DNA of 64,000 bases from Bacteroidaceae bacterium (lineage in GTDB: Bacteria; Bacteroidota; Bacteroidia; Bacteroidales; Bacteroidaceae), in NCBI GenBank assembly GCA_017445925.1, contig JAFSRW010000088.1, forward strand, positions 1-64,000, in the 5' to 3' direction. Each line of letters starts with the position of its first letter. Within the stretch, counting starts at the first letter, position 1. The translations under genes and the position numbers were made by a program. Positions 10,772-44,826 of this stretch are shown here, piece by piece. The notes below the pieces were generated by a model. The model was not told the DNA's origin. It was given only the letters and a program-made list of their open reading frames with translations, and searched no databases.

Positions 10772-12958
10772 TCATTCTACCAGTTCGAAGACGGGAATAT
10801 AAGACTTATCTACGGGGGTGGTTACATATTGGCCGCCCCTGTATTTTTCTCCCGTGCGACGGTTCTTCCATTGTCCCTTTATCTTAGGAAGATATGATTT
10901 CCAAGTGGTAACTCCAGGCTCGGTAACCGGACAGATAAGCAATCGGGGACCGAACATATATTCGAACTTTTGTTGCAAGGCAACAGGATCGTCAGCAAAA
11001 TCAAACACCAGCGGGCGCATCAGCGTGTAACCCTCTGTGGAGACACGACGGGCACATTCCTCCAGATAAGGACGCAGGCTTTCACGTTCCTGCAAACATT
11101 CCCTAATGATGTTCTTGGCTTCCTCGCCATAGTTCCAAGGCTCAGTATTGCTCATATACCCATGAACACGCATCAGCGGCAGGTAGACCGAGAGTTCTAT
11201 CCAGCGCAGCATACGCTCTATGTAATCCTGATTGGTATACTGGTCGCCTGGACGAAAGAAGCCTCCTGCATCGTATGTCCACCAAGGGATGCCAGCTGCC
11301 TGCACACCCAGGCCAGCCGTTATCTGTCGACGGAGCGTTTCCCAGTCGTTCCCCACATCTCCGCTCCACAAGGCGGCACCATAACGCTGAATGCCAGGAA
11401 AACCGCATCTGGTAAGAATCATTTGGCTCTTGGCATTTGGCTCTTGACTGTTGGCACTAACTAAGCCTTCATAAACGGTTTTATTCACCATCAGAGGGTA
11501 AATATTTCTTACCTGCTCACCTGCCCATCTGCCATTATTAACCCTACGACCAAGCAAATCATCGTTTTCTGGCTCTGTAGCATCCTGCCACCAGGCATCT
11601 ATGCCCAAAGGAACCAGGCGCTGGCTGAAGTTCCTCCAATAGGCAGCAGCAGCATCTGGGTTGAAGAAGTCTATCCAGTCGGTTCCTGGGATATAATAAT
11701 CCGAGGCTTGCATCTGCTTGCCCACCTCAGAGGTCTTGTCTATCTTTGACCAAACGCTAACCATCAGTCGTATTCCCATCTTATGAAGCGAATCAGTCAG
11801 GGCCTTTGGATCGGGATAGAACTGCTCGTCAAACTGCATGGCATTCCACCCGTATTTGCCCCAATACTGCCAGTCCTGCACAATCATGCTGATGGGCATA
11901 TTCTCCTGCATGAAACGATTGGCCGTCTGTAGGATTTCCTCCGATGAATGAAAACGTTCCCTGCAATGGATGTAGCCAAGGGCCCAAGAAGGTATAAGCG
12001 GGCACTCACCTGTCAGATGGCGATAAGTGGCAATGACCTCATCGGCAGAACCAACAAAGACAGTATAGTCCACGCTGGTAGCAACGGACGAACGGAAGAC
12101 CGTCTCATCTGTCACCTTCTGATAATAGACCACAGGCTTATCATAACGCGTCAGTTCCGCCCTTAACTGGTGCTTGCCTGCCTCAAGGTGAACAATCTGC
12201 GAGGTCGTGGGTGGAAGCCATAGGTTCTGCATATTGATGACCGTCTTGCCGTCGATAACAAGGTGGTGACGTCTTGCCATCTTCTGACCTACGTCAAGCA
12301 ATAGAGAGTAGTCGCCAGCTTCCGCAATATCAAGTGTAGCCTCAAAGAAGTTGTGCTCTCGGACTTCACGCTTTCCGCCTTCCGTTGAGGTTACATTCAC
12401 CTCTTCGCGCACGCCTTCGCCGTTTCCCTTTGTCAGTTTTACAGATTGGTCGGAGGGGTTGAATTCCGTCATTCCGTAGTTGTTCCACAGCACGCCATAG
12501 CCTTTGCTGGAGATGAGCATGGGCAAACTGATTTGCGTGTTAACCTGTGTCAGTCGACGTGACAGTCCGCGCACGTTGCTGTACCCGTCCTGAAACTGTC
12601 CAAGCCCATACAGACATTCGTCTTTAGGCGAAGAAAAGGCCAATGTGGCCTGTCCGTTCTTCAACTGATGACGTGTAGCCGTGAAGACGGTCTTCCCACG
12701 GGCATCCTTAATAAATAAGGTATTGTGTTTCTTGTCAATGTTCACTTTAAGGTTGCAATCAGAAACTTCATCATTACGGACATATACCCACTCAGGCAAA
12801 GTGTTCTCTACGTTACCCTCCGAGTACTGAATGCGCACGGCATTCTTGGCAACGGGTTTTATGATTATTGAACCCGCAGCAAATGGTTTCTGGAGCGGCT
12901 TCGCTCCAACAGACAAGAGCGAGAAGAGTAAGAGCAGAAAGACGGTCTTGATTCTCAT
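10772..12958 (-). CDS. Glycoside hydrolase family 31 with PA14-like insert (alpha-xylosidase or alpha-glucosidase)
   Basis: 728 residues with a signal peptide (IKTVFLLLLFSLLSVGA). The GH31 barrel shows the nucleophile motif DAWWQDATEPEND and the acid/base region LWSGDVGNDW. A PA14-like insert lies at about residues 195-300 (YSLLLDVGQKMARRHHLVIDG), as in characterised alpha-xylosidases of xyloglucan systems, so alpha-xylosidase is the favoured guess. An array of five heptamers (11423-11457) encodes the peptide SANSQEPNAKSQ in a loop before MILTRCGFPG. It is the last gene of a minus-strand run with other secreted proteins. Confidence 0.9.
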   Translation of the reverse strand: MRIKTVFLLLLFSLLSVGAKPLQKPFAAGSIIIKPVAKNAVRIQYSEGNVENTLPEWVYVRNDEVSDCNLKVNIDKKHNTLFIKDARGKTVFTATRHQLKNGQATLAFSSPKDECLYGLGQFQDGYSNVRGLSRRLTQVNTQISLPMLISSKGYGVLWNNYGMTEFNPSDQSVKLTKGNGEGVREEVNVTSTEGGKREVREHNFFEATLDIAEAGDYSLLLDVGQKMARRHHLVIDGKTVINMQNLWLPPTTSQIVHLEAGKHQLRAELTRYDKPVVYYQKVTDETVFRSSVATSVDYTVFVGSADEVIATYRHLTGECPLIPSWALGYIHCRERFHSSEEILQTANRFMQENMPISMIVQDWQYWGKYGWNAMQFDEQFYPDPKALTDSLHKMGIRLMVSVWSKIDKTSEVGKQMQASDYYIPGTDWIDFFNPDAAAAYWRNFSQRLVPLGIDAWWQDATEPENDDLLGRRVNNGRWAGEQVRNIYPLMVNKTVYEGLVSANSQEPNAKSQMILTRCGFPGIQRYGAALWSGDVGNDWETLRRQITAGLGVQAAGIPWWTYDAGGFFRPGDQYTNQDYIERMLRWIELSVYLPLMRVHGYMSNTEPWNYGEEAKNIIRECLQERESLRPYLEECARRVSTEGYTLMRPLVFDFADDPVALQQKFEYMFGPRLLICPVTEPGVTTWKSYLPKIKGQWKNRRTGEKYRGGQYVTTPVDKSYIPVFELVE
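11423..11457. repeat. Seven-bp array inside the GH31 coding sequence
   Basis: Five units: TTGGCTC, TTGGCAT, TTGGCTC, TTGACTG, TTGGCAC. It is read in frame on the minus strand as Ser/Asn/Gln-rich peptide and belongs to the same TTGGC family as the arrays at 23604, 44950, 62541 and 63508. Confidence 0.9.
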
Positions 12959-12973
12959 ATCATCTGTGTTTAC

Positions 12974-13471
12974 TTACTTTTTTAGTCCATTCAACAAGTC
13001 CTCTAAGAGACCACCGCTTCGGGGAGGCCACATATCTTCCTGAATGTAGCGAATACGGGAATAACCCGTTGCGGTTTTCAGTTCAGGACTCAATGTTACT
13101 TCGCCACAACTGTCAAACTCACCAGGTGCGAAATTAATAACGCCCTGCTTTTTACCCGTGGCATCGGTCAGTTGGTAAGTCATGAGGCCACCCTCCTCCT
13201 TCACTATGCCCTTATTATCTTTACCATTGGGAATCAGTTTATAGAATTCATCCTGAGCTTCAGCAACGGTCTTCACAGGTCGACCGATAATATCAGGCGT
13301 CCTTTCATCAATAAGCACACCATAGACCTTTCCGTCTGATGTTGGAGCCAAACGATTAAGCATGTAAGCCAAATCATCCACTCCATTCTCAGAATTACCA
13401 TTCTCATCATTGCTACAACCGGCAAACAAAGGTAAAATGGCTAAGAGTAGCCAAAGAAGATTCTTTTTCAT
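12974..13471 (-). CDS. Small exported lipoprotein, unknown function
   Basis: 165 residues starting MKKNLLWLLLAILPLFAGC; the lipobox LFAGC predicts a lipid-anchored protein. The open frame extends 13 codons upstream, but that start would overlap the DUF3667 gene, and MKKN gives a proper signal peptide. The mature part has no motif I recognise; it contains AYMLNRLAPTSDGKVYGVL and GVINFAPGEFDSCGEV. It lies 13 bases from its upstream neighbour and 15 bases before GH31, so it is probably co-transcribed with both. Confidence 0.75.
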   Translation of the reverse strand: MKKNLLWLLLAILPLFAGCSNDENGNSENGVDDLAYMLNRLAPTSDGKVYGVLIDERTPDIIGRPVKTVAEAQDEFYKLIPNGKDNKGIVKEEGGLMTYQLTDATGKKQGVINFAPGEFDSCGEVTLSPELKTATGYSRIRYIQEDMWPPRSGGLLEDLLNGLKK

Positions 13472-13484
13472 AATATTCAGTATT

Positions 13485-14342: not shown

Positions 14343-14357
14343 TGTTACTCAGAATAA

Positions 14358-16916: not shown

Positions 16917-16935
16917 ATTTTAGTTTATTTGTTTA

Positions 16936-17021
16936 TTAGCTTAGTAGTTTAGTAGCTTAATTGGTTAAGGTTAAGGTTAGCTTTAACGTTCTTATAACCT
17001 ATAACCTCTAACCTCTAACCC
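16936..17021. repeat. Composite 8/6/7-bp repeat array between GH30 and GH43
   Basis: Successive blocks: GCTTAGTA-type octamers, GGTTAA hexamers, then TATAACC/TCTAACC heptamers, the last abutting the GH30 stop codon. The same order and unit lengths recur at 29341-29464 after the 1656-residue gene. Confidence 0.85.
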
Positions 17022-18659: not shown

Positions 18660-20645
18660 ATGAACATGAAAGCAATATTCACCCTGTTGGTAGCCCTTTC
18701 TTTTTCCCAGCTACCCCTCCACTCTAAACTCTCAACTCTAAACTCTCAACTAAATCAGGGTTATCCCATTAACCCTGTAGCATTTACATCTGTGAAAGTC
18801 ACCCCTAACACATTCTGGGGGCAGAGACTGGAGGCCAGCAGAAATGTAACCATTCCTCTGGCATTCTCAAAGTGTGAAGAATCAAAGCGTTACGCCAACT
18901 TTTCTAATGCAGCAATTCATCTTAAAGACCCCTCTAAAGTGTTTGAGATAAAGAAGGGTACATTCCCCTTTGACGATACAGACCCCTACAAAACCATTGA
19001 GGGTGCCAGCTATATTCTGCAGACATATCCTGATAAGGCATTGGCAGTTTATATCGACTCTGTATTAAACGTAATAGCCTCTGCACAGGAACCCGACGGA
19101 TACTTGTACACAGCCCGAACACAGAATCCTCAGCATCCGCACGACTGGTCGGGAATGACACGCTGGAGCAGCGAGGAACAGGGTAGCCACGAACTTTACA
19201 ACCTTGGGCACATGGTAGAAGGTGCCGTTGCCCACTATCAGGCTACAGGTAGCCGTAAGTTTTTGGATATTGCCATCAAGTTCGCCGATTTGGTTTGCAA
19301 GGAGGTTGGACCTAACCCAGGTCAGGCGTGTGTAGTACCAGGTCATCAGATTGCTGAGATGGCGTTGGCAAGACTCTATTTGGCAACGGGTGACAAGAAA
19401 TATCTGGATGAAGCTAAATTCCTACTTGATTATCGTGGAAAGACCACAGTAAAGCAAGAGTATTCGCAGAGCCATAAGCCCGTTGTTGAACAGGATGAAG
19501 CTGTAGGTCACGCCGTTCGTGCCGCTTATATGTATGCCGGTATGGCAGATGTAGCAGCCCTGACGGGAGATAAGGATTACATCAAAGCCATAGATGCCAT
19601 CTGGGACAACATTGTAACAAAAAAACTCTATATTACAGGCGGCATTGGAGCAACCGGAAACGGAGAGGCCTTTGGCAAGAACTACGAGCTGCCCAACATG
19701 ACAGCCTACTGCGAGACTTGTGCCGCTATCGGCAATGTATATGTCAACCACCGCCTGTTCCTGTTGCACGGCGAGTCTAAATATTACGATGTATTGGAGC
19801 GCACGCTCTACAACGGACTTCTCAGCGGTGTTTCATTAGAGGGTAACGGTTTCTTCTACCCCAACCCGCTGGAGTCTGAGGGTCAGCACGAGCGCCAGCC
19901 TTGGTTCGGCTGTGCCTGCTGCCCCAGCAATATCTGCCGCTTCATCCCGTCGCTGCCGGGCTATGTCTATGCCGTTAAAGAAAAAGCGATCAATAATACG
20001 CCTGCTGTCTATGTGAACCTTTTCCTGTCGAACACATCCACGCTGAATGTAGGTGGCAAGAAGGTTGTATTAAGTCAGAAAACAGATTATCCCTGGAGTG
20101 GCGATATCACACTGAAAGTTGAGGAGAACAAGGCAGGCAAATTCAGGCTCAATATCCGCCTCCCGGGCTGGGTCTATAACCAGGTTGTTCCCTCCGACCT
20201 CTACACCTACGCAGATGGCAAAATGCCCAAATTCACCGTCAGCGTGAATAACAGGAAACAACTGTTTTTCCCCTCTGAAATAGAATCCTCAAACGGATAT
20301 ATAGCGATGGGTGCTGAGTGGAAGAAAGGCGACGTGATAAAAATCCACTTCGATATGGAACCCCGTATCATTCGTGCCAACGAGAATATCGAAGCCGACC
20401 GAGGTATGCTGTGCGTGGAGCGCGGTCCGCTGGTTTACTGCATCGAGCATCCGGATAATACCATTAATATCAAGGAAGCAAAGATTAGCACTGATACGCA
20501 GTTCAAGACAGGTAAGACAAAGATTGCCGGCACACCCGTCACCACGCTTATCGCCAAAGACTCAGGCCTGACATTTATCCCCTACTACGCTTGGTGCCAC
20601 AGAGGCAAAGGCAATATGCGCGTATGGATACCAGAAAAGAAGTGA
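18660..20645 (+). CDS. Glycoside hydrolase family 127, beta-L-arabinofuranosidase
   Basis: 661 residues. The metal-site signature of the family is present: E352 and C354 in YCETCAAIGN and C420/C421 in WFGCACCPSN, equivalent to the Glu-Cys-Cys-Cys zinc site of HypBA1-like enzymes. These release beta-L-arabinofuranose from arabinan or extensin-type glycans. A short signal peptide ends near SQLPLHS and is followed by a heptamer-array-derived peptide (KLSTLNSQLN). Start is at 18660 or the in-frame ATG 18666. It is divergent from GH30 and ends in a strong terminator. Confidence 0.92.
   Translation: MNMKAIFTLLVALSFSQLPLHSKLSTLNSQLNQGYPINPVAFTSVKVTPNTFWGQRLEASRNVTIPLAFSKCEESKRYANFSNAAIHLKDPSKVFEIKKGTFPFDDTDPYKTIEGASYILQTYPDKALAVYIDSVLNVIASAQEPDGYLYTARTQNPQHPHDWSGMTRWSSEEQGSHELYNLGHMVEGAVAHYQATGSRKFLDIAIKFADLVCKEVGPNPGQACVVPGHQIAEMALARLYLATGDKKYLDEAKFLLDYRGKTTVKQEYSQSHKPVVEQDEAVGHAVRAAYMYAGMADVAALTGDKDYIKAIDAIWDNIVTKKLYITGGIGATGNGEAFGKNYELPNMTAYCETCAAIGNVYVNHRLFLLHGESKYYDVLERTLYNGLLSGVSLEGNGFFYPNPLESEGQHERQPWFGCACCPSNICRFIPSLPGYVYAVKEKAINNTPAVYVNLFLSNTSTLNVGGKKVVLSQKTDYPWSGDITLKVEENKAGKFRLNIRLPGWVYNQVVPSDLYTYADGKMPKFTVSVNNRKQLFFPSEIESSNGYIAMGAEWKKGDVIKIHFDMEPRIIRANENIEADRGMLCVERGPLVYCIEHPDNTINIKEAKISTDTQFKTGKTKIAGTPVTTLIAKDSGLTFIPYYAWCHRGKGNMRVWIPEKK
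18721..18755. repeat. Seven-bp array inside GH127, at the signal-peptide junction
   Basis: ACTCTAA, ACTCTCA, ACTCTAA, ACTCTCA, ACTAAAT, translated as SKLSTLNSQLN between the signal peptide and the mature protein. Confidence 0.9.
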
Positions 20646-22321: not shown

Positions 22322-24451
22322 CTAACGATTATCCAAATATATTTCCATCTTATTTATCTGTTCGCCCGATGATTTATCTGCCTCCCGAGGCAAATAGATA
22401 GGGGCATCGGGCTGAAGAGGAAGGATGCGTAACTCTAATTCACGGACACCTTTGGGTAGTCGCCACAGGCCAAACAGGAAGGGACGACCATAGTAGAAAT
22501 TATCGGCCACCAAACGGCCATCGGCATAAAGACGGGCACAATCACCACGATAGTTGATAGATAAAAGTGGAGACCCCTCTCCTGCTCCCCCGAGGGGAAG
22601 AGAAGTGATGAGTGAAGAATCGGTCGGCAAATCAATCCTATAGACAGCTGCCTGCAGCCAGTCCTCCTCTGAAGGAGCCTCTGCCACCTTTGCCTTCCCT
22701 TTTACAATAGAGCGCAGAGGACCAGCCTCCTTAATTTTGGAGAATTGACAATTGAGAATTGAAAATTGAAAATTATTGAACTCTTGAAATTCTTGAACTC
22801 TTGAAACCTGAGCCATTAACCCTGAACCATTATCCAGAAAAAGTTTTTCCGCCTCAGCCTTGGTAATCAGATATATGTTGTCATAAACAGGTTTTTCTGT
22901 GCCTCGAGGCTTTACATTCTTCAGCGTCTTGCCGTTCTGCATACTAATGGTGGTTGTGATACTAGGTATTTGCATCATATATATCTTGCCTTCACGTCTG
23001 GCCACAAGTTGTGCCGTAGCATAACGGATACTATCTATATTTACAGGGAAGATAGCCATACAGCCGCTGGGAATGGTAAGTTTAGGCAGTTTTACGCCAC
23101 AGGCTTCCAGTTGAACGTTCTTCTTTTCGCTTAGCTTACAGAAACGTTCATAGTTGTTAATGAATATAAAACCAGAGCCGGACTCTTCACTCCTTATGGC
23201 CCATCTGAGTTGTCCGTCCTCACCTTTCTTCAAATCCTGAGGAGAAGGGAAAGAGGCCTCCATAGGTGCAAGTGTCTCACCCCAGTCGTGCATAAACAGG
23301 TGAAGGGGACGCAGCATAAAGTACTGCGAATAAGCCTGACCGTACTCACCTAAAGGAGCCTGAAAGTCGTAGGTCATAACAGGTAGGTCGTTATTGGCTG
23401 TTCCAGGCGAAGTCTGGCACTCGTTCAGCGTATGGAGCACGCCCTCAGGGTTGGTACCACCATGATACATATAGTAGCCCAGCAGATTGGAACCGCTGCC
23501 CAACTTAACTAATGCCATCGAATAGGCATCCTCGGGGTAAAGATACGGTCGGCGGTGATAAGCTGTAGCCATGCCGCCTCCCAGTTCACATGTGAAATAA
23601 GGATATTGGCTATTGGCCATTGGCTGTTGGCTATCGGCATTTTGCGAATAAACAAACTGATCCGTTGCTATGGCAGTTGAAGAACGGAAAGCTTTAAAAT
23701 TGAATGCCTTGTAGTAATTGCCGCACCCCTCGCTGGTGTTCTTATCCCAGAACCCGTCGGCGTAGTCGCCATAGAGCGGCAGAATCTCACCAAATGGAAC
23801 TGGAGTACTCAGTTCGGGCCATCCTGTACGAGTATAGAACGGCAGACTAAAGCCTACCTTCTCTGCTATCCCCTTCAGTGCCATCAGGTATTCGCCGCGC
23901 CCACGATATTCATTGTCAAACTGGGCTGCCATCACAGGACCGCCATCCTTCCATTGTAAGCCTTGTATCTGCGTAAATATCTGGCGGTACAGTTTCTCCA
24001 CATAACCCAGAAAAACGGGATTCTGGTCACGCAACTTGCAACCCTTACTGAACATCCAGTCAGGAATACCACCATTACGAACCTCTCCGTGGCAGAACGG
24101 TCCTATGCGCAGCACAACGGGCATCTGCTCCTCTTTGCAGGCCTCCAGAAATCTGCGTAGTGAGCGCTGCCCGTCCCAGCGGAAGACACCCTCCTGTTCC
24201 TCAATGTGATTCCAGAAAACGTAGGTGGCAATGATGGTTACTCCACCCTCCTTCATTTTCTTAATCTCATCTGCCCATTCATCTGCAGGGATTCGGGAAT
24301 AGTGCACCTCGCCCATCACGGGGCATACACGCTTGCCGTCAAACATCAGGCTCATACTGTCCCACGTCACAGCAGGAACGCCTTGTGCCTGGATGTTGGA
24401 CAGGCCATTCAGCAGCGCACAGATCAGGAGGAGTGCTCTCAGTTCTTTCAT
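22322..24451 (-). CDS. Glycoside hydrolase family 35 beta-galactosidase, carrying repeat-derived inserts
   Basis: 709 residues starting MKELRALLLICALLNG (signal peptide). The extra 11 codons upstream lack a signal and are rejected. GH35 features: FDGKRVCPVMGEVHYSRIP, ATYVFWNHIEEQEG, FCHGEVRNGGIPDW, AQFDNEY (acid/base region) and FTCELGGGM (nucleophile region). Three loops are encoded by repeats: QNADSQQPMANSQ (heptamers 23604-23638), FNNFQFSILNCQF (22745-22800) and SLPLGGAGEGS (G-rich palindrome 22572-22600). The frame is intact throughout. It probably acts on beta-galactosides of hemicellulose or pectin side chains. Confidence 0.92.
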   Translation of the reverse strand: MKELRALLLICALLNGLSNIQAQGVPAVTWDSMSLMFDGKRVCPVMGEVHYSRIPADEWADEIKKMKEGGVTIIATYVFWNHIEEQEGVFRWDGQRSLRRFLEACKEEQMPVVLRIGPFCHGEVRNGGIPDWMFSKGCKLRDQNPVFLGYVEKLYRQIFTQIQGLQWKDGGPVMAAQFDNEYRGRGEYLMALKGIAEKVGFSLPFYTRTGWPELSTPVPFGEILPLYGDYADGFWDKNTSEGCGNYYKAFNFKAFRSSTAIATDQFVYSQNADSQQPMANSQYPYFTCELGGGMATAYHRRPYLYPEDAYSMALVKLGSGSNLLGYYMYHGGTNPEGVLHTLNECQTSPGTANNDLPVMTYDFQAPLGEYGQAYSQYFMLRPLHLFMHDWGETLAPMEASFPSPQDLKKGEDGQLRWAIRSEESGSGFIFINNYERFCKLSEKKNVQLEACGVKLPKLTIPSGCMAIFPVNIDSIRYATAQLVARREGKIYMMQIPSITTTISMQNGKTLKNVKPRGTEKPVYDNIYLITKAEAEKLFLDNGSGLMAQVSRVQEFQEFNNFQFSILNCQFSKIKEAGPLRSIVKGKAKVAEAPSEEDWLQAAVYRIDLPTDSSLITSLPLGGAGEGSPLLSINYRGDCARLYADGRLVADNFYYGRPFLFGLWRLPKGVRELELRILPLQPDAPIYLPREADKSSGEQINKMEIYLDNR
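22572..22600. repeat. G-rich palindromic repeat inside GH35
   Basis: On the minus strand it reads CTTCCCCTCGGGGGAGC then AGGAGAGGGGTC, encoding SLPLGGAGEG. It is nearly identical to 42822-42852 inside the AddB-like gene, and a related inverted copy is at 44295. Confidence 0.85.
22745..22800. repeat. Heptamer and nonamer array inside GH35
   Basis: TTGACAA, TTGAGAA, TTGAAAA, TTGAAAA followed by CTTGAAxT-type units (TTGAACTCT, TGAAATTCT). In frame on the minus strand. Confidence 0.85.
23604..23638. repeat. Seven-bp array inside GH35
   Basis: TATTGGC, TATTGGC, CATTGGC, TGTTGGC, TATCGGC; translated on the minus strand as ADSQQPMANSQ, just before the nucleophile strand. Confidence 0.9.
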
Positions 24452-24529
24452 TTTCTTTTTTGAGAATAATGGAGGGGGCACCATAACTCTGGTGTCCCCT
24501 CTAAACTTTATTTATTTATGAGAAAAGTC

Positions 24530-29319: not shown

Positions 29320-29340
29320 TATTTTATTGACTTTATTTTA

Positions 29341-29464
29341 GCTTAGTAGCTTAATAGCTTAATAGGTTAGTAGCTTAATAGATTATGGTTAAGGTTAAGG
29401 TTAAGGTTAAGGTTAACGTTAAAGTTAACTTTTTCTATAACCAATAACCTATAACCTATAACCT
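29341..29464. repeat. Composite 8/6/7-bp repeat array upstream of the SGNH gene
   Basis: Octamers GCTTAGTA, GCTTAATA, GCTTAATA, GGTTAGTA, GCTTAATA; then about seven TTAAGG-type hexamers (from about 29389); then TATAACC, AATAACC, TATAACC, TATAACC heptamers (29436-29463), abutting the stop codon of the 1656-residue gene. Same plan as 16936-17021. Confidence 0.9.
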
Positions 29465-36260: not shown

Positions 36261-37622
36261 TTACATCTTTGGCAATTTATCCAGGTACTCCTTGATGACT
36301 TCATCGCTGGGAATGATGTCGGTCATGGTGCCATTGTTGTACTGCTCGTAAGCATAGAGGTCGAAGTAACCTGTACCAGTCAAGCCAAAGAGGATGGTCT
36401 TCTCCTCGCCGGTCTCCTTGCACTTCAGTGCCTCGTCGATAGCTACACGAATGGCGTGGCTGCTCTCAGGAGCAGGCAGAACACCCTCTACGCGGGCAAA
36501 CTGTGTGGCAGCATCAAAGACCTGTGTCTGCTCTACGGCGCGAGCCTCGAAGAGTCCATCGTGATACAACTGAGACAGGATAGGACTCATACCGTGGAAG
36601 CGCAGACCGCCTGCATGGTTGGCAGAAGGAATGAACTGGCTACCCAAAGTGTACATCTTAGCCAAAGGACAAATCATACCAGTATCGCAGAAGTCGTAAG
36701 CAAACTTACCGCGTGTGAAGCTGGGGCAGGAAGCGGGCTCTACGGCAATAACCTTATAATCGGCCTCGCCACGGAGCATCTCGCCTATGAAGGGAGAAAC
36801 CAAACCGCCCAGGTTGCTACCACCTCCGGCACAACCAACAATGATATCGGGCTTGATGCCGTACTTATCCATAGCCTTCTTGGCCTCCAAACCAATAACG
36901 GTCTGATGCAGCAATACCTGGTTCAGCACAGAACCCAAAACGTAACGATAGCCTTCGCTGGTTACGGCTGCCTCAACAGCCTCGCTGATGGCACAACCCA
37001 GTGAACCAGTGGTGTCAGGATGATCGGCCAGAATCTTACGGCCTACCTCAGTAGTAAGACTGGGCGAAGGTGTTACGGTAGCTCCGTAGGTACGCATCAC
37101 CTCGCGACGGAAGGGCTTCTGCTCGTAGCTACATTTTACCATATAAACGCGGCAGTCGAGGCCAAAGTAAGCACAAGCCATACTGAGAGCTGTACCCCAC
37201 TGTCCGGCACCGGTCTCGGTGGTAACACCCTTCAGGCCCTGCTTCTTAGCATAGTAAGCCTGCGCAATGGCAGAGTTCAACTTATGGCTGCCTGAGGTAT
37301 TGTTACCCTCGAACTTATAATAAATCTTGGCAGGTGTCTGCAAAGCCTGTTCCAAGAAATATGCACGTACCAATGGTGAGGGACGATACATCTTATAAAA
37401 ATTGAGTATCTCCTCTGGAATATCGAAGTATGGAGTTTCGTTGTCCAACTCTTGTTTGTTCAGATCTTCACAGAAGATAGGATTGAGGTCTTCTAATGTC
37501 AGAGGCTGTCCTGTTCCGGGATTGATAAGTGGAGCAGGTTTGTTCTTCATGTCAGCACGGACATTATACCACTGCGTTGGAATCTCATTTTCCTCAAGAT
37601 AAATTTTGTAGGGGACTTTCAT
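36261..37622 (-). CDS. trpB: TrpB2-type tryptophan synthase beta chain
   Basis: 453 residues. PLP lysine in EGNNTSGSHKLNSA, phosphate-binding GCAGGGSNLGG, TETGAGQWG, and the TrpB2-type N-terminal extension with RADMKNKPAPLINPGT. It condenses indole with serine to give tryptophan. TrpB2 proteins lack the usual TrpA interface and often act on free indole or as a salvage enzyme; no trpA is nearby. It follows panB across a repeat and hairpin region. Confidence 0.92.
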   Translation of the reverse strand: MKVPYKIYLEENEIPTQWYNVRADMKNKPAPLINPGTGQPLTLEDLNPIFCEDLNKQELDNETPYFDIPEEILNFYKMYRPSPLVRAYFLEQALQTPAKIYYKFEGNNTSGSHKLNSAIAQAYYAKKQGLKGVTTETGAGQWGTALSMACAYFGLDCRVYMVKCSYEQKPFRREVMRTYGATVTPSPSLTTEVGRKILADHPDTTGSLGCAISEAVEAAVTSEGYRYVLGSVLNQVLLHQTVIGLEAKKAMDKYGIKPDIIVGCAGGGSNLGGLVSPFIGEMLRGEADYKVIAVEPASCPSFTRGKFAYDFCDTGMICPLAKMYTLGSQFIPSANHAGGLRFHGMSPILSQLYHDGLFEARAVEQTQVFDAATQFARVEGVLPAPESSHAIRVAIDEALKCKETGEEKTILFGLTGTGYFDLYAYEQYNNGTMTDIIPSDEVIKEYLDKLPKM

Positions 37623-37639
37623 AATGATTTGTTATTTAG

Positions 37640-37731
37640 TTTATTGTATTTGGTTTACTGTTTATGGTTTACTGTATCCCGACGACAGAATCGTCGGGCA
37701 CAATTGTTTTTGTTTTCGGTTTTTGTTTTTG
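37640..37731. repeat. Short repeats and hairpin between panB and trpB2
   Basis: Repeats of the GTTTACTGTTTATGGTTTACTG type (about 37650-37674), a perfect 8-bp hairpin CCCGACGA-CAGAA-TCGTCGGG (37678-37698), then TTTTTG-rich repeats up to the panB stop. There is no T-run directly after the hairpin on the minus strand, so terminator function is doubtful. Confidence 0.6.
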
Positions 37732-38550
37732 TTAATAACTTTCCGCCTCGCTGGGGAAGCTCCCATCCTTTACATCTATAATATACTGGCCGACGGCATC
37801 GTTTATTACATTGTGAAGGTCAGCATAACGGCGCAAGAACTTAGGCTTGAAACTATCGTTCATACCCAACATATCATGGGCAACCAGAACCTGACCGTCA
37901 GCTGCTCCCGCACCAATACCTATAACGGGAATGGAAACAGCCTGGCAAACCTTCTGGGTAAGTTCGGCTGGAATCTTCTCCAAGACAATAGAGAAACAGC
38001 CGGCCTGCTCTAACAGCTTGGCATCATTCATTAGCTTGGTAGCCTCGGCCTCCTCTTTAGCCCTTACGCCAAAGCCGCCAAACTTATACACACTCTGGGG
38101 GGTAAGGCCTAGATGACCTATCACAGGAATACCAGCATTGATAATACCGCGGATGGTATCTATAATCTCCTCGCCACCTTCCAGTTTCAAACCATCAACA
38201 CCCGTCTGCGCCATCATACGGATAGCATTACGCACCCCCTCTTCACGACTCACCTGATAGGTTCCGAAGGGCATATCGCAAATTACCATAGCCCTCTTAA
38301 CGGCACGAGCCACACTGCGAGCGTGGTAAATCATCTCATCGATAGTAATGGGCAGGGTGGTAAGGTTACCTGCCATAATGTTGCTGGCACTATCGCCCAC
38401 TAGGACAATGTCCACTCCGGCCTGATCAACAATCTGTGCCATTGTATAATCATAAGAAGTAAGCATGGCAATCTTTTTACCATCCTTCTTCATCTGCATG
38501 ATTTTCTGCGTTGTAATTTTCTTTGTATCTTCAACAATATATGCTGCCAT
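37732..38550 (-). CDS. panB: 3-methyl-2-oxobutanoate hydroxymethyltransferase
   Basis: 272 residues from MAAYIVEDTKKITTQK; a longer open frame to 38796 is rejected because it would overlap the start of the divergent helicase gene. Motifs: MLTSYDYTMAQIVDQAG, LVGDSASNIMAG, DMPFGTYQVS, GLKLEGGEE, PVIGHLGLTPQS, GIGAGAADGQVLV. It makes ketopantoate, the first committed step of pantothenate and CoA synthesis. A minus-strand -7 box TAATTTTG is at 38577-38584. Confidence 0.95.
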   Translation of the reverse strand: MAAYIVEDTKKITTQKIMQMKKDGKKIAMLTSYDYTMAQIVDQAGVDIVLVGDSASNIMAGNLTTLPITIDEMIYHARSVARAVKRAMVICDMPFGTYQVSREEGVRNAIRMMAQTGVDGLKLEGGEEIIDTIRGIINAGIPVIGHLGLTPQSVYKFGGFGVRAKEEAEATKLMNDAKLLEQAGCFSIVLEKIPAELTQKVCQAVSIPVIGIGAGAADGQVLVAHDMLGMNDSFKPKFLRRYADLHNVINDAVGQYIIDVKDGSFPSEAESY

Positions 38551-38629
38551 TATGCAAGTTTTTTTGTTTTGCGGTGCAAAATTACGAAAAAAAACCTTAT
38601 CTTTGCACAAATCTATAGCATTTCTCGCT

Positions 38630-41600
38630 GTGAACAATACATTATCTATATATAAAGCTTCTGCCGGAGCAGGAAAAACGTTCACGCTGACCGTTGAATA
38701 CATCCTACTCTTACTGCGCAAAGGGAAAAAGGAATTTGAGCAGACACTGGCCGTAACCTTTACCAATAAGGCTACCGCCGAGATGAAGGAGCGCATTCTG
38801 GAAACCCTCTATGGCCTGTCGCACAACATACCCGAATGTGACGGCTATCTGAAAGTTATACAGAATCGGTTAAAAGAACTGCATGAAGTGATGGGTGAAG
38901 AGATGATTCGCCAACGAGCATCGGAAGCGCTGAGTGCCATACTGCATGATTACACGCACTTCCGTGTAGAAACCATCGACTCTTTCTTCCAGAGCGTGCT
39001 GCGCAATCTGGCACACGAACTGGGTCTGACTGCCAATCTGCAAGTGGAACTGAACAACGACGAGGTAGTATCGCGCTCCGTGGACCGTGTAATCGAGAAT
39101 ATGCAGAACCGCAAGGATGTGCAAGGATGGATAATGGATTACGTGGAGGAACAACTGCAGACTGGCGAGAGGTGGAACATAGCCGGTATGATAAAGCAGT
39201 TTGCACGATGCATATTCGAGGAAGCCTTCCAGAACCGCTCGACAGAGGAACGGGAAAAAATCTCGGATTCCGCAGAAATGAACGCCTTTAAGAAGGAGAT
39301 GCACGCTATCATTAATAGTTGCAAAAACCAACTCGCCGAAAGGGCTGAGGCATTTGAAAGACTGGTGAACGGGAAAACGCTGAACTTTGAACGCATCAGC
39401 AACGGAAGAATCTACCTGAGTTTTCTGAAACTTGTAAGGAGTGAGAATACAGACCGAGCCTCTAACACCATCTACAAGGCCGCTGACGATTATGAGGTAA
39501 TGCTGAAAGCTGTAGACAGGAACAACCCCCAACTGGTGGCTGAAGCTCAAGAGATACAGACGGCCCTTGCTGAGCTGCTACATCTTTACGAACGCAGCAG
39601 CTTTGCCATCAATACTGCCAAGCTATCGCTCCGCTACCTGAATCCGCTGCGTTTATTAAACGTTATAGAGCAGGAGGCCAACGCTATTAATGCGGAGAAC
39701 AACCAGTTCAACCTGAGCAAAACCCCTACTCTACTGAGCAAACTGGTGGAGAAAACAGATGCGCCATTTGTGTTTGAGAAGATTGGCACCCAATTCCATA
39801 ATGTGATGATTGATGAGTTCCAGGATACCAGTCGGCTACAATGGAACAACTTCAAGGTGCTGCTGATAGAGAACCAAGCTACAGGTGGCAACGACCTGTT
39901 GGTGGGTGACATCAAGCAGAGTATCTACCGTTGGCGTAATGGCGACTGGGCCATCCTGAAGAATGTAAAGCAGGAACTGGCCAACCTGAAACCACAAGAC
40001 AAGGAACTGTGCTATAACTTCCGCAGCAAGAAGAATGTAATTGACTTTAACAACGCTTTCTTCCCCAAGGCTGCCAAAGTATTGGACGAGATAGAGCCAC
40101 AGGCCCGCTTCCGGCTACAGGATATCTACAGCGATGTGGAGCAGCAAACCTTTCAGACTAAAGAAGAAGGCTACGCTTCGGTAACGCTGTACACCAAGAG
40201 TGGAAACGCTGCGCCAGAGGATTATGAGGAGCGCATGATTACGGATATGATAACCCAAATCCGCACCCTGATGCAGGGAGGACTCAGCACGCAGGACTTT
40301 GCTATCCTTGTGAGAAAGAAAAATAATGCCGAGAGTCTGCTCAATTGGTTCCATCTGTTGGCACCAGAGATAAAACTGGTGAGCGATGAAGCCTTCCTGC
40401 TGGAATCCAGTGTAGCCGTGCAGATGCTGGTAGCAGCCCTATTCGTGCTGAACAACACCAAGCATCTGAACCCCATACCAGAGCGTTATCTGATGATGCA
40501 TTACTACAGCGATGTGCTGCAAGAACCGCTGCCAATGCTTGAGATAGCAACCGCCCAACCCGATGATCTGTTACCGGAAGCATTCACGCAACACAAGCAG
40601 GAACTGGCTCAACTACCGCTTTATCTGCTTTGCGAACGGTTATATCAGATATTCCAGTTAGATAAAATCGACGGACAAGATACCTACATCTTTACCTTTA
40701 TGGACGAGCTGCAGAACCACTTGCGCAGCAACCCTTCGGATATCCATACCTTCCTGAAAGCGTGGGACGAGAACATTCACAATCACTCCATCCCTGCCGG
40801 TGAGATAGACGGTATCCGCATCCTTACCATACACAAGAGTAAGGGATTGCAGTTCCATACCGTTCTGCTGCCTTATATGGATTGGACCATCGAAAAGGAT
40901 CGCAACGATGATACTATCTGGTGCCAAGCCGAGAAGGAGCCTTTCAATGCCTTGGGCTCGCTACCTATCAATGCAGGTAAGAATATGCAGCAATCAGAAT
41001 TCGCCCCTGATTACAACGAGGAACATTTGCAGCGTCGTGTGGATGCGCTGAATATGATATATGTGGCTTTCACACGTGCCGAAAATAATCTGTATGTGTG
41101 GGGACTGGCTGCCGAGAATGAAGGGAACATCTCCATAGCCGGTGACCTGATACGTGCCAGCCTTCCAAACTCTCAACTGTCAACTGTCAACTGTCAACTG
41201 TTTTATGAATTGGGAACGCCCGTTACAACTCATAAAACAGAAAAGCAGCACAAGAACCGTATGAAGAGCTCGCATGAGAAAGAAGATGCCCTGAACGTGG
41301 CAATGACATCCAACGCTCCAACGCTAGACTTCATGCAAAGCAATCAGTCGCGTAAGTTCATTGGCAGTTTAGGAACAGAAGAGGAAGCAGAAACGGGTCA
41401 GCAGACTTATCTGGAGGTGGGTAAGATTATGCATTACGTGCTTAGCCAGATTGAACATACGGGCCAGATTCAGAAGGTGCTTAACCATTGTATGGCAGAA
41501 GGCATTATAACAGACCGCAAACTGATGGATGTGGTAATAAAAAGGTTGCAGAAAGGATTCTCGAATCCCAAGATTGCACAATGGTTCAGCGCAGACAATC

Positions 41601-41854
41601 AGGTATTCAACGAGTGCAGCATCACCAGTATCAACAAGGAAACGGGCGAACCTTACACCCTTCGCCCCGACCGCGTTATTATCAACGGCAACCAGATTAC
41701 GGTTATAGATTTCAAGTTCGGTCGCCCCGATACAGAGCACCACACTCAGGTGCAGACATACAAAGAACTGATGCGAACCATGTACCCAGATAAACAAGTG
41801 GAGGGATATCTATGGTATATTTATTCAGGTAAAACAGAGGAGGTAAAGGCATGA
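38630..41854 (+). CDS. AddA/RecB-like UvrD helicase with C-terminal nuclease domain
   Basis: 1074 residues from a GTG start at 38630, just before the conserved NNTLSIYKASAGAGKTFTL (Walker A); the open frame further upstream overlaps panB and is rejected. Superfamily 1 motifs: AVTFTNKATAEMKERI, MIDEFQDTSRLQW, VGDIKQSIYRWR, TIHKSKGLQFHTV, NMIYVAFTRAENNLYVWG. A RecB-type nuclease end has VIDFKFG and QVQTYKELM. With the next gene it should process DNA double-strand breaks. A heptamer array (41168-41202) adds SQLSTVNCQLF in a loop. A plus-strand TATCTTTG lies at 38598-38605. Confidence 0.9.
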   Translation: MNNTLSIYKASAGAGKTFTLTVEYILLLLRKGKKEFEQTLAVTFTNKATAEMKERILETLYGLSHNIPECDGYLKVIQNRLKELHEVMGEEMIRQRASEALSAILHDYTHFRVETIDSFFQSVLRNLAHELGLTANLQVELNNDEVVSRSVDRVIENMQNRKDVQGWIMDYVEEQLQTGERWNIAGMIKQFARCIFEEAFQNRSTEEREKISDSAEMNAFKKEMHAIINSCKNQLAERAEAFERLVNGKTLNFERISNGRIYLSFLKLVRSENTDRASNTIYKAADDYEVMLKAVDRNNPQLVAEAQEIQTALAELLHLYERSSFAINTAKLSLRYLNPLRLLNVIEQEANAINAENNQFNLSKTPTLLSKLVEKTDAPFVFEKIGTQFHNVMIDEFQDTSRLQWNNFKVLLIENQATGGNDLLVGDIKQSIYRWRNGDWAILKNVKQELANLKPQDKELCYNFRSKKNVIDFNNAFFPKAAKVLDEIEPQARFRLQDIYSDVEQQTFQTKEEGYASVTLYTKSGNAAPEDYEERMITDMITQIRTLMQGGLSTQDFAILVRKKNNAESLLNWFHLLAPEIKLVSDEAFLLESSVAVQMLVAALFVLNNTKHLNPIPERYLMMHYYSDVLQEPLPMLEIATAQPDDLLPEAFTQHKQELAQLPLYLLCERLYQIFQLDKIDGQDTYIFTFMDELQNHLRSNPSDIHTFLKAWDENIHNHSIPAGEIDGIRILTIHKSKGLQFHTVLLPYMDWTIEKDRNDDTIWCQAEKEPFNALGSLPINAGKNMQQSEFAPDYNEEHLQRRVDALNMIYVAFTRAENNLYVWGLAAENEGNISIAGDLIRASLPNSQLSTVNCQLFYELGTPVTTHKTEKQHKNRMKSSHEKEDALNVAMTSNAPTLDFMQSNQSRKFIGSLGTEEEAETGQQTYLEVGKIMHYVLSQIEHTGQIQKVLNHCMAEGIITDRKLMDVVIKRLQKGFSNPKIAQWFSADNQVFNECSITSINKETGEPYTLRPDRVIINGNQITVIDFKFGRPDTEHHTQVQTYKELMRTMYPDKQVEGYLWYIYSGKTEEVKA
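41168..41202. repeat. Seven-bp array inside the AddA-like gene
   Basis: AACTCTC, AACTGTC, AACTGTC, AACTGTC, AACTGTT, translated in frame as NSQLSTVNCQL. Confidence 0.9.
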
Positions 41855-44826
41855 AGACATTTCTGAGTATAGTAGCCAACGACCTTCTGCAGCGTTTTGG
41901 CACCAATATGCGCGACGTGACGGTGGTATTCCCTGGTAAGCGTGCAAGTCTTTTCCTTAATCAGGAACTGGCTCTGGCAAGCGAAAAACCCGTCTGGGCA
42001 CCACGTTACATTACCATGAGCGACCTCTTTTACAGCCTCTCGCCATACGTGAAAGCCGATCCCATAGACAGCATTGCATCGCTGTACCAGATATTCAGCA
42101 AAACCATCCTAACAGAGGAAATGCAGGAAGAATATTCGCTGGATAAGTTCTGGGGATGGGGAGAGGTTATCCTGTCGGACTTCGACGATGTGGACAAGCA
42201 CCTGGCAGATGCAAAGGCTATCTTCTCGAACGTCTATGAGCTGATGCAGTTGGAGAGTCTGGATTATCTGTCCGACGAGCAGAAAGAGACGCTTGAACAT
42301 TTCTTCAAGAATTTCTCTACCGAGGGCAATTCGATAATCAAGGAGCGCTTCTTAAATGTATGGTCCAAGATGTACCAGATGTACACAGAACTGCGTGAAG
42401 AACAAATGCAAACAGGGGCGGTATACGAGGGAGCCATCTTCCGAAGCGTTATTGAGAACCTAAAGAAAGATGATAGCCTTCTTGCCTCGCTGTTAGAAAA
42501 GAAGCAGGCCATAGTATTTGCAGGCTTTAATGTGCTGAACGATGTGGAACACGCCCTGATGTCGGCTATCCAAAAGCAGGGAAAGGCACTCTTCTATTGG
42601 GATTACGATAGCTATTATGTAGAGAATCGCGACCACGAGGCAGGTGAATTTATGCGTCAGAACCTGAAGGATTTCCCCTGTGCTTTAGGAAAAGAGGAAT
42701 ACAACAATCTGCGACAACTGCAAGACGTCACCTTTATCTCATGCAATACAGATAATGCCGCAGCTCGTTATGCCAACACGTGGCTAACATCTTTGGCATT
42801 AGCATATGAGACAAAGAAAAGCCTCCCCTTAGGGGGAGCGGGGAGAGGGGCCGTCATTCTCTGCAACGAAGACCTTCTTCAACCCGTTCTTCATGCGCTA
42901 CCTAAGCAAACTGGAAAGGTGAACATCACCATGGGATTCCCACTTACTGATGCACCTATATACAGCTTTGTAATGGCATTGATAGCATTGCAGACAGATG
43001 GATTCGACCCCACACAACAACGTTTTCGCCATCCCTTTGTGCAGGTGGTTCAGCATCATGTGTATGCTCCCTACATAGATGAGCAACAATGGCTTATCTA
43101 CAAGGCCTCGGACAATGTGCAGCTACTTACCTATCTTATAGATATGGTGGAGAAGGTGGGCTTGCATTTCTCCATGATTCAGGAACCCGATGTGTACGAG
43201 CAGCTATACATCGAGGCCATCTTCCAGACACACCGCATACTGAACAAATGCCTTCAACTGGTCAGCAGAGAAGAAAAACCACTCGTTGTTCAGCATATCA
43301 CTTTACGACGATTGCTACGTACACTTTTGTGCAGCACCAGTATACCCTTCCACGGTGAACCGGCTCATGGATTGCAAGTAATGGGCGTGCTGGAAACACG
43401 CTGTCTGGACTTCTCGCACATGCTCATGCTGTCCGTAGAAGAAGGAATGCTGCCACGCAACACGCAGAGCAACACTATGATTCCGGCCAATATCCGTGAG
43501 GCATTCGGTCTGACAACACCACGCCATAGGATTGCCGTCTTCTCGTATTACTTCTACCGATTAATACAGCGCACCGAGCATCTGACCTGCGTTTACAACG
43601 AGAACTGCGTGGGTAACAACAAACATGAGATGTCGCGTTTCCTACGACAGATGTTGGCAGAGACAGATATTCCCATCCGTACACTCTGGCTACGTAGCGA
43701 GACCAGCATTCAGGATGCCCAAGAACTTTCTGTACCAAAGACACCCGAGATTATTGAGCACATGCTACAGCGTTATGATATCAATACCAGCGGGAAGAAA
43801 GCTATTCCACTCAGCCCGTCGGCCATCAATACATATATGACGTGTCCTCTGAAGTTCTTCCTCACGCATGTCTCTGGTCTCAGAGCCGACGTCGACCCGC
43901 AGGAGGGGCTGAATGCGCCACTCATAGGCGATATCTTCCACGATACGGCTGAGTTGATATACAAGCGTATCATACAACGCACAGGAAGCAATATCATTCA
44001 GCGAAACACGCTGTCAGAGTTGCTCAATGATATGGAAGGACTTATCGGCCCCCTGTTGGATATTGTCTTTGACACCATCTATTTCCATCCTGCCGATCGA
44101 TGGCAACGCACCGAGGAAGCGTGGAAGATGGTTTGCCGTGATACCCGACCAGGCAACCAATACACAGGCGAACTCATCATCATACGTCGTGTGCTCATGC
44201 AGTACCTCACCAATCTGCTACGTTACGACCTTCGCCACGCCCCTTTCCGCATCATCGCTACAGAAACGGACCGCTATTTTAACGTCAATATCAACCCCTC
44301 TCCGACTCCTCCGAGGGGGAGAGAACAATCCCAAGTCTCCAATTCTCAATGCTCAAGTCCCAATGCTCAATGTTCAATGCTCAATGCTCAATTAATAATA
44401 ACCACCGGAGGTCGTATAGACCGACTGGACGAACAAAACGGACGCATAAGGGTTGTGGATTACAAGACCGGCTATCATATGCCCAGCATCAAGAGTATGG
44501 ACGATGTTACCAATACAGCAGGCAGGCACGAAGGTTATTACTTGCAAGCATTCCTCTATTCTTATGCAGTTCTGCAGAACGATAAGCCCAGCCTACCTCT
44601 TGTACCAGCTCTCTTCTATCCTGGGAAAGCATACAAGGAGGACTACAACCCTACCCTTACCATAAATAAAGAGGAAATAAAGGACTTTGCGCCATTAGCC
44701 GATGAGTTCTATGAGGGCTTAACGCAAGTGGTGAAACAGATATTCTCACCCGACTACAACTTTACGCAGACTCCCGAGCTAAAGGACTGCGCCAACTGCG
44801 ACTTCAAACTACTTTGTGGAAGATGA
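41851..44826 (+). CDS. AddB-like PD-(D/E)XK nuclease subunit with Fe-S cysteines
   Basis: 991 residues overlapping the AddA-like stop by four bases (ATGA), so translationally coupled. N-terminal inactive-helicase-like part (VTVVFPGKRASLFLNQEL), then a nuclease domain near the end: cysteine in YMTCPLKFFL, GRIDRLDEQNGRIRVVDYKTG, and terminal DCANCDFKLLCGR, giving the four-cysteine iron-sulfur pattern of AddB. Two repeat-derived inserts remain in frame: SLPLGGAGRG (42822-42852) and a long loop NPSPTPPRGREQSQVS plus NAQCSMLNAQL (44295-44393) within the nuclease-domain beta-hairpin. Presumed partner of the preceding helicase. Confidence 0.88.
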   Translation: MKTFLSIVANDLLQRFGTNMRDVTVVFPGKRASLFLNQELALASEKPVWAPRYITMSDLFYSLSPYVKADPIDSIASLYQIFSKTILTEEMQEEYSLDKFWGWGEVILSDFDDVDKHLADAKAIFSNVYELMQLESLDYLSDEQKETLEHFFKNFSTEGNSIIKERFLNVWSKMYQMYTELREEQMQTGAVYEGAIFRSVIENLKKDDSLLASLLEKKQAIVFAGFNVLNDVEHALMSAIQKQGKALFYWDYDSYYVENRDHEAGEFMRQNLKDFPCALGKEEYNNLRQLQDVTFISCNTDNAAARYANTWLTSLALAYETKKSLPLGGAGRGAVILCNEDLLQPVLHALPKQTGKVNITMGFPLTDAPIYSFVMALIALQTDGFDPTQQRFRHPFVQVVQHHVYAPYIDEQQWLIYKASDNVQLLTYLIDMVEKVGLHFSMIQEPDVYEQLYIEAIFQTHRILNKCLQLVSREEKPLVVQHITLRRLLRTLLCSTSIPFHGEPAHGLQVMGVLETRCLDFSHMLMLSVEEGMLPRNTQSNTMIPANIREAFGLTTPRHRIAVFSYYFYRLIQRTEHLTCVYNENCVGNNKHEMSRFLRQMLAETDIPIRTLWLRSETSIQDAQELSVPKTPEIIEHMLQRYDINTSGKKAIPLSPSAINTYMTCPLKFFLTHVSGLRADVDPQEGLNAPLIGDIFHDTAELIYKRIIQRTGSNIIQRNTLSELLNDMEGLIGPLLDIVFDTIYFHPADRWQRTEEAWKMVCRDTRPGNQYTGELIIIRRVLMQYLTNLLRYDLRHAPFRIIATETDRYFNVNINPSPTPPRGREQSQVSNSQCSSPNAQCSMLNAQLIITTGGRIDRLDEQNGRIRVVDYKTGYHMPSIKSMDDVTNTAGRHEGYYLQAFLYSYAVLQNDKPSLPLVPALFYPGKAYKEDYNPTLTINKEEIKDFAPLADEFYEGLTQVVKQIFSPDYNFTQTPELKDCANCDFKLLCGR
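42822..42852. repeat. G-rich palindromic repeat inside the AddB-like gene
   Basis: CCTCCCCTTAGGGGGAGC followed by GGGGAGAGGGGCC, encoding SLPLGGAGRG in frame; nearly identical to the GH35 copy at 22572-22600. Confidence 0.85.
44295..44393. repeat. Palindromic repeat plus heptamer array inside the AddB-like gene
   Basis: 44295-44325 is an inverted relative of the G-rich element (CCCCTCTCCGACTCCTCC then GAGGGGGAGAG). It is followed to 44393 by CTCAATG-type heptamers. Together they add about 33 codons without breaking the frame. Confidence 0.85.

What the first reader, a model, noticed from the sequence alone, without database searches (positions are those of the whole stretch)
11423..44393. 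Seven-bp repeat arrays inserted in frame inside at least five proteins
Heptamer arrays of the kind that fill intergenic gaps also lie inside GH31 (11423), GH127 (18721), GH35 (22745 and 23604), the AddA-like gene (41168) and the AddB-like gene (about 44330). Several are exactly 35 bp. All keep the frame and encode Ser/Asn/Gln-rich peptides (NSQ, NAQ, LNSQL) in apparent surface loops or at the signal-peptide border. An active process seems to be seeding short repeats, with selection keeping only tolerated sites. Such arrays could also shift frame by slippage and switch genes off.
Basis: partly seen in the sequence, partly recalled or inferred. Interest (0 to 1): 0.72.

Follow-up and report, generated by a model that had tools for sequence, protein, structure and literature searches.

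The report
Seven-base repeat arrays inside proteins
In a group of rumen bacteria, short arrays of seven-base repeats, mostly of one typical size and with a sequence "dialect" that differs between species, fill gaps between genes and also sit in frame in variable loops of proteins, which points to a process that scatters them and to selection that removes the harmful ones.

Summary
Six 7-bp arrays lie in frame in five genes (GH31, GH127, GH35 twice, AddA-like, AddB-like), each in a poorly conserved segment. In a 690-kb sample of the same genome 7 bp is by far the commonest tandem period (51 arrays, plus 16 at 14 or 21 bp; no other period above 4; none in a shuffle). Arrays are 14 times denser outside ORFs. 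Inside ORFs 27 of 30 YCAA arrays face the stop-free way, and two of the three exceptions carry TCA where TGA would fall. This supports seeding plus selection.

Independent slippage births do not explain this. I found no 7-bp array that breaks a frame, so on/off switching is unsupported.

Heptamer arrays and in-frame repeats are each known elsewhere; I call this a new variant of a known kind. The enzyme is unknown; IS200-like transposases and reverse transcriptases do not appear to be required.

The parts
11420..11455 (-). Array in the GH31 gene (10772-12958, -): four to five CCAA/TCAA words 7 bp apart with mixed spacers; encodes NSQEPNAKSQ
   Evidence: five residues longer than the closest orthologue; falls at a 4-residue gap against a solved alpha-xylosidase
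18717..18751 (+). 35-bp array (CTCAACT/CTAAACT) near the signal-peptide end of the GH127 gene (18660-20645, +); encodes LHSKLSTLNSQL; also present in G075 (92% identical protein)
22740..22806 (-). Array (TCAATTN) and adjoining repeats in the GH35 gene (22322-24484, -), about residues 560-581
   Evidence: 36 bp longer than in G075
23604..23638 (-). Second GH35 array (CCAANNG, mixed spacers), about residues 283-294; other species carry other arrays in the same loop
41168..41201 (+). Array (TCAACTG) in the AddA-like gene (38465-41854, +)
   Evidence: other units in register in L152/L156 and L157, decayed in L155, none in L153 and L154
44332..44392 (+). Array (TCAATGC/T) in the AddB-like gene (41851-44826, +), just before the conserved TTGGRIDRLD stretch
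44298..44323 (+). GC-rich inverted repeat (11-nt arms) in frame in the same AddB-like loop
   Evidence: similar GC-rich stretch in L157 and L154
5025..5119 (-). Two intergenic arrays (ATAACCT, 5025-5058; TCAATTT/TCAACYT, 5087-5119)
16920..17020 (.). Intergenic run of 8-bp then TATAACC 7-bp arrays, with TTAAGG between
29339..29464 (.). Intergenic run of 8-bp, 6-bp and 7-bp (CTATAAC) arrays
37633..37677 (-). Intergenic array of the GTAAACNNNN type upstream of the gene at 36261-37622 (-); absent from L152-L156
50458..50488 (-). Intergenic AATGAAG array
62542..62569 (.). Array of ATTGGCT (CCAA type on the other strand)

Best explanation
A mutational process in this genus deposits and rewrites short arrays of 7-bp units across the genome, drawing on a small vocabulary (mostly YCAANNN) whose bias differs between species. 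YCAA arrays most often reach four words, about 32 bp. Purifying selection then removes arrays that break a frame, add stops or disturb folded parts, so those left in genes lie mostly in the sense orientation in variable loops, near termini or near a signal-peptide end. My preferred step-by-step account is repeated realignment of the copied strand at 4-base matches 7 bases apart, started or overwritten from arrays elsewhere in the genome. The arrays inside proteins are tolerated by-products, not switches. SHOWN: period 7, vocabulary, size mode, species bias, change of unit at the same site, depletion and orientation bias in ORFs. INFERRED: exchange between loci, the realignment step, and neutrality of the loops. 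UNKNOWN: the enzyme, and why seven bases and four words.
For: Period 7 dominates and recurs in congeners. 95 arrays use 35 unit classes where draws by genome frequency give means of 85-91 (lowest 77); 60% carry YCAA against 13-14% expected. Four-word arrays are the mode: 28, 59, 13, 8 for three to six words. Units are alike within a species: identity 0.24 within and 0.037 between genomes, 0 of 1000 shuffles. At the AddA and AddB loops species carry different units in near-identical register. Filter: 13.7-fold lower density in ORFs, 27 sense to 3 antisense, 24 to 0 in relatives, TCA for TGA in two antisense arrays, poorly conserved segments.
Against: No 32-bp block is demonstrably copied in the own genome: none of 35 four-word arrays shares a mixed spacer order (weak excess in G016 only). 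The size mode is not explained by the realignment model. The GH127 array is shared with G075, so not every array is recent. 3-word arrays outnumber 4-word arrays (10 to 9) among those my first scorer had not called. No enzyme was found.
Confidence: 0.6

Rival explanations
1. Ordinary microsatellites: each array is born on its own by replication slippage from a chance seed and later decays.
For: Arrays are tandem and often homogeneous; shared flanks were seen at one pair of sites only; few mixed orders are shared between loci.
Against: 35 classes among 95 arrays and 60% YCAA, a mode at four words, CCAA arrays whose spacers differ from unit to unit, and species-specific units are not expected from independent births.
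Confidence: 0.15
2. The arrays are selected binding sites (DNA or RNA) for a species-specific protein, for example a translation or transcription regulator, and the in-gene copies are chance or tolerated sites.
For: A fixed number of words, free spacers and species-specific units look like a recognition sequence that evolves with its reader. 10 of 24 arrays in same-direction gaps end within 14 bp of the downstream start. MacGregor proposed such a role for TAACTGA repeats (PMC4679880, abstract and two sections seen).
Against: Gap types are used about as expected: 24 of 32 placed arrays in same-direction gaps, which hold 67% of intergenic bases. The few orthologous intergenic sites compared mostly differ. 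43 of 95 arrays are inside ORFs.
Confidence: 0.15
3. Phase variation: arrays shift frame by gaining or losing a 7-bp unit and switch genes off.
For: 7 is not a multiple of 3, so one unit would shift the frame; such switches are known in other bacteria (recalled).
Against: Orthologue breaks examined are not at 7-bp arrays; arrays have about four, often mixed, units; they sit in DNA-repair-like genes and in many unrelated ORFs.
Confidence: 0.03
4. A Y1 (IS200/RAYT-like) transposase or a reverse transcriptase makes the arrays.
For: Across 295 Bacteroidales genomes 101 of 178 with Y1_Tnp against 22 of 117 without it have five or more matches to the two 7-bp patterns; no correction for ancestry or genome size.
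Against: In the own genus Y1_Tnp is found in 8 of 61 genomes, not in the own genome, and is unrelated to array number (p 0.48); RVT_1 is in 14 of 61 and goes with fewer arrays (medians 2 and 30, p 0.003). The genomes are incomplete drafts.
Confidence: 0.05

Closest known systems
Heptanucleotide tandem repeats: those of Calothrix and Nostoc (cyanobacteria), TAACTGA arrays of Beggiatoaceae, cyanobacteria and five Bacteroidetes (PMC4679880), GGGAATC arrays of Xanthomonas (PMC4692102)
   Same: 7-bp direct repeats, mostly intergenic, patchy between lineages; PMC4679880 also reports some arrays inside ORFs, mostly near protein ends, and different heptamers in one genome
   Different: Many units sharing YCAA, a mode at four words, species-specific units, and change of unit at the same protein loop in related species; not G-rich
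Rickettsia palindromic elements (RPE) and intragenic REP repeats (PMC3733652, passages seen)
   Same: Dispersed short repeats that sit in frame in proteins, including DNA-repair genes, with other repeats between genes
   Different: The heptamer arrays are direct, not palindromic, repeats; Y1/RAYT transposases are missing from most array-bearing genomes of the genus. The GC-rich inverted repeats in the AddB-like loop and in G072 look closer to this kind
Phase-variable simple sequence repeats
   Same: Short tandem units in or next to genes
   Different: No sign of switching, mixed units, about four words, many unrelated genes

Membership tests
Heptanucleotide tandem repeats (STRR-like) | Tandem 7-bp units in clear excess over other periods and over shuffles | tested here: met
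Heptanucleotide tandem repeats (STRR-like) | Mostly intergenic | tested here: inconclusive
   13.7-fold denser outside ORFs, but 43 of 95 arrays are inside ORFs, which cover 92% of bases
Heptanucleotide tandem repeats (STRR-like) | Same unit as a described family (TAACTGA, GGGAATC and the like) | tested here: not met
   unit list holds neither; the comparison is with the units named in the two papers seen, not with all described families
RPE / intragenic REP | Dispersed repeat in frame in variable segments of proteins | tested here: met
RPE / intragenic REP | Palindromic (stem-loop) element with a GTAG or CGTC end | tested here: not met
   the heptamer arrays are direct repeats; only the separate GC-rich elements are inverted repeats, and their ends were not tested
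RPE / intragenic REP | RAYT (Y1) transposase in the genome, for GTAG REPs | tested here: not met
   none in the own draft genome, 8 of 61 in the genus
Phase-variable simple sequence repeats | Unit-number variants that change frame or expression | not testable with these tools
   no reads; orthologue breaks examined are not at 7-bp arrays

The most novel reading that the evidence does not exclude
The arrays are products of a dedicated, species-specific machine that writes a block of typical size (four YCAA or five AAYN words at 7-bp spacing, about 32 bp) into or over existing DNA, with a specificity that changes between species: a new kind of small dispersed element without palindrome, Y1 transposase or reverse transcriptase, which also supplies proteins with new loop sequence.
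Probability: 0.15. Interest if true: 0.85.

Novelty: new variant of a known kind. Interest (0 to 1): 0.56.

Why it matters
Heptamer repeats in bacteria have been reported since 1990 (recalled date) without an accepted origin. This genus offers many species with 0 to several hundred array matches, a shared typical size and species-specific units, so the generating process can be sought by comparing gene content with array number. It also shows directly repeated, non-palindromic sequence turning over inside protein loops, which bears on how bacterial proteins gain new segments.

Tried and rejected
An AlphaFold model of the AddB-like protein from seven sequences was too poor to use (mean pLDDT 35), so "loop" rests on alignments alone. 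The GH35 structure alignment shown did not cover the two arrays. Rfam found only a tRNA in the window. Y1_Tnp looked like the agent across the order and was dropped after the genus test. RVT_1 was tested and not supported. Copying of whole arrays was tested and is not supported in the own genome. The GH127 gaps in G008 and G027 are insertions in which I found no repeat; the break in G029 has no array; that in G077 is a run of N. An assembly artefact is unlikely, because the separately titled assemblies L152 and L156 carry the same arrays.

Limits of counts: array calls come from my own scorer and a simple ORF caller (90 codons or more). One ORF that is probably spurious (37624-38013) makes the 37633 array count as coding, and one array counted under YCAA and coding (L190 14263-14354) is a protein repeat with no YCAA word; neither enters the 30 arrays of the orientation test, which needed two words. 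Only one shuffle per stretch was made. The species-bias test used arrays typed from the listings, which are cut: 34 of G077, 20 of G016, 17 of G070 and the first 24 of G000, one row per array; G006, G022 and G031 were left out. The 20 short stretches of G077 and G016 were picked for having at least four words; 16 of 20 have exactly four. The Y1 and RVT_1 comparisons are not corrected for ancestry. Only 14 of 94 own arrays had an orthologous site among the fetched loci.

Literature: searches listed no paper on 7-bp arrays in this group; only open-licence papers are held. Seen: PMC4679880 abstract and two sections; PMC4692102 and PMC3733652 passages; PMC4060949 one passage of no use; the rest as listings.

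Full report
WHAT WAS CLAIMED AND WHETHER IT IS THERE. The window is contig 48 of a draft Bacteroidales genome (3.32 Mb, 100 contigs, 84% complete). The nearest named relatives found are uncultured 'Bacteroidaceae', 'Bacteroidales' and 'Prevotellaceae' genomes, two of them titled sheep rumen. Tandem Repeats Finder confirms arrays of 7 or 14 bp in the GH31, GH127 and GH35 (twice) genes and in the AddA-like and AddB-like genes, plus several between genes. Pfam supports the gene names; NCBIfam gives AddA and AddB matches below its cut-offs, so 'AddA-like' and 'AddB-like' stay qualified. All six arrays are in frame.

GENOME-WIDE EXCESS. I fetched 40 stretches of the same genome, of which 37 were readable, giving 690,059 bases with the window. 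At the stricter threshold there are 51 arrays of period 7, 11 of 14 and 5 of 21, at most 4 of any other period from 2 to 30, and none in a dinucleotide shuffle. At a looser threshold there are 95 arrays of period 7, 14 or 21: 35 between ORFs, 17 overlapping an ORF end and 43 inside ORFs, although ORFs cover 92% of the bases. Density is 0.068 per kb inside ORFs and 0.93 per kb outside or overlapping, a 13.7-fold difference. Relatives give 29 inside and 44 outside or overlapping in 677 kb. Four genomes, three of them from two sister genera and one from another family, gave no array of any period in 100 kb.

THE UNITS ARE A VOCABULARY. The 95 arrays fall into 35 heptamer classes; drawing seeds by their frequency in the genome gives means of 85 to 91 and never fewer than 77. 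57 of 95 (60%) carry YCAA by consensus, against 13-14% expected. Other recurring units are of the TGAAGA, GTAAAC, TAACC and AATTATG types. CCAA arrays keep the 7-bp spacing while the three-base spacers differ from unit to unit, which slippage alone would not give. Samples of four other Bacteroidales genomes show 7-bp arrays with other units.

A TYPICAL SIZE. Among 116 YCAA arrays in about 1.37 Mb of the genus sample, 28 span three words, 59 four, 13 five, 8 six and 8 more. With a stricter definition in the own genome the numbers are 19, 35, 9 and 4 (six or more); four is the commonest in coding (12 of 21), overlapping (7 of 12) and intergenic (7 of 13) arrays, while among those that my first scorer had not called three words (10) slightly exceed four (9 of 21). 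The common full form is five AAYN words with four three-base spacers, 32 bp; 23 of 35 four-word arrays have the leading AA, and 32 bp is the modal length (20 of 95). Over all tetramers at 7-bp spacing, chains of three, four and five number 474, 416 and 106, against 28, 0 and 0 in a shuffle; spacings of 6, 8 and 9 also exceed the shuffle, but their chains of four number only 36, 31 and 29.

SPECIES BIAS. Four-word matches range from 0 (12 of 61 genomes) to 349 (the own genome) in the genus. The listed arrays of G077 use TGG or TGT after YCAA in 80 of 102 units; those of G016 use CTG or CTA in 45 of 60; G070 and the own genome are mixed. Mean unit identity is 0.24 within genomes and 0.037 between them, reached in 0 of 1000 label shuffles. 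Across 295 Bacteroidales genomes 122 have a five-word YCAA match and 150 a match to the reversed control pattern; the control is itself a 7-bp array, so period-7 arrays are widespread, patchy and not tied to YCAA.

IN-GENE ARRAYS ARE FILTERED. In the own sample 27 of 30 in-ORF YCAA arrays are sense (binomial p 8e-6); in relatives 24 of 24, some at sites orthologous to those of the window. A run of antisense units such as CATTGAA meets TGA in every frame within 21 bp. Two of the three antisense arrays read IEHSTLNIEH, with TCA where a pure array would have its first TGA (the pure reading is my own derivation). The segments are among the less conserved of their proteins: array windows rank 26 of 712, 3 of 644, 10 of 699, 68 of 709, 49 of 1118 and 19 of 971 from the bottom (partly circular, because the array itself lowers the score). 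The GH31 array falls at a gap against a solved alpha-xylosidase. In the AddB alignment of seven close sequences residues 811-851 hold no invariant residue, between well-conserved flanks.

CHANGE OF UNIT AT THE SAME SITE. In AddA, the own array (AACTCTC, then AACTGTC) corresponds in register to AACTCTC in L152 and L156 and AATTCTC in L157, each 32-33 bp, to a decayed array in L155 and to none in L153 and L154. In AddB, AATGYTC corresponds to AACTCTN (L152, L156), AATTCTC (L157), AACTGTC (L154) and AAGGTTC (L155), with a short mixed array in L153. More distant orthologues show no such peptide there. In the second GH35 loop other species carry other heptamer arrays (L207 and L211), and G072 carries an in-frame inverted repeat with 36-nt arms. 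Net length changes against an orthologue are 6 bp (AddA against L153) and 15, 9 and 36 bp (GH31 and the two GH35 sites against G075), less than or not equal to the array itself at most sites, so arrays have replaced loop sequence or other changes followed. The GH127 array is shared with G075. One intergenic case is a clean gain: about 113 bp with an 81-bp array, between a stop and a start codon that lie a few bases apart in G075 (L164 8016-8096); other compared gaps differ more diffusely.

MECHANISM. The data call for a source of arrays with a preferred period, vocabulary and size, and a filter. The filter is well supported. For the source I favour repeated realignment of the copied strand at four-base matches seven bases apart, with arrays elsewhere as templates, because units are shared across loci and biased by species. 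This is inference. Against copying whole arrays, none of 35 four-word arrays in the own genome shares a mixed spacer order; G016 shows an excess (12 pairs against 4.6, reached in 5 of 2000 permutations), G077 not clearly (9 against 6.0, 208 of 2000). Y1 transposases and reverse transcriptases do not appear to be required: they are in 8 and 14 of 61 draft genomes, neither in the own one. Y1_Tnp is nevertheless associated with arrays across the order. RVT_1 genomes have fewer arrays (median 2 against 30, p 0.003); I give no meaning to that without correction for ancestry.

PHASE VARIATION. I looked at broken or gapped orthologues. AddA stops lie at residues 15-40 in the three loci where one was found, of five examined. 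The GH127 frame break of G029 has no array, that of G077 is a run of N, and G019 carries an 8-bp array that leaves the GH35 frame open. Nothing here supports switching; reads would decide.

KNOWN OR NEW. Heptamer repeats are known: PMC4692102 (passages) says that they are over-represented in many bacterial genomes and describes GGGAATC arrays; PMC4679880 (abstract and two sections) describes TAACTGA arrays, including five Bacteroidetes, and some arrays inside ORFs, mostly at the edges of proteins. In-frame dispersed repeats are known from Rickettsia and REP families, including DNA-repair genes (PMC3733652, passages). I found no report of the combination seen here in the searches named under Tried and rejected. 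I therefore call it a new variant of a known kind.

Noticed in passing
window 16920-17020 and 29339-29464: Two gaps hold the same order of three kinds of array: 8-bp (TAGTTTAG or TAGCTTAA), TTAAGG 6-bp and TATAACC-type 7-bp.
   Followed up: no
window 37633-37677; L188 971-1002; L192 6998-7037: Arrays of the GTAAAC type lie next to a short hairpin-like sequence (tgcccgacga...tcgtcggg or similar), close to a start codon in at least two cases.
   Followed up: no
window 44298-44323; L284 117-221 (G072): GC-rich inverted repeats inserted in frame in the same protein loops that take heptamer arrays.
   Followed up: partly
L178 11557-12117 and L179 1698-2336 (own genome): Two ORFs whose middle consists largely of 7-bp array (EPRVESQEPITESQ and similar); no Pfam match.
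   Followed up: partly
L173 5414-5445, L185 18525-18555, L189 4671-4703, L249 (-): Arrays recur in C-terminal tails of the form DLSGRK-array-LKKGVYI, which resemble secretion sorting tails (resemblance recalled).
   Followed up: no
L285 (G019): An 8-bp array in frame in GH35 (DKLTSEQV repeats), so other periods intrude as well.
   Followed up: no
61 genomes of the genus: Genomes with an RVT_1 match have fewer YCAA arrays (median 2 against 30, p 0.003), not corrected for ancestry.
   Followed up: no
295 Bacteroidales genomes: Y1_Tnp presence goes with 7-bp arrays across the order (101 of 178 against 22 of 117), not within the genus.
   Followed up: partly
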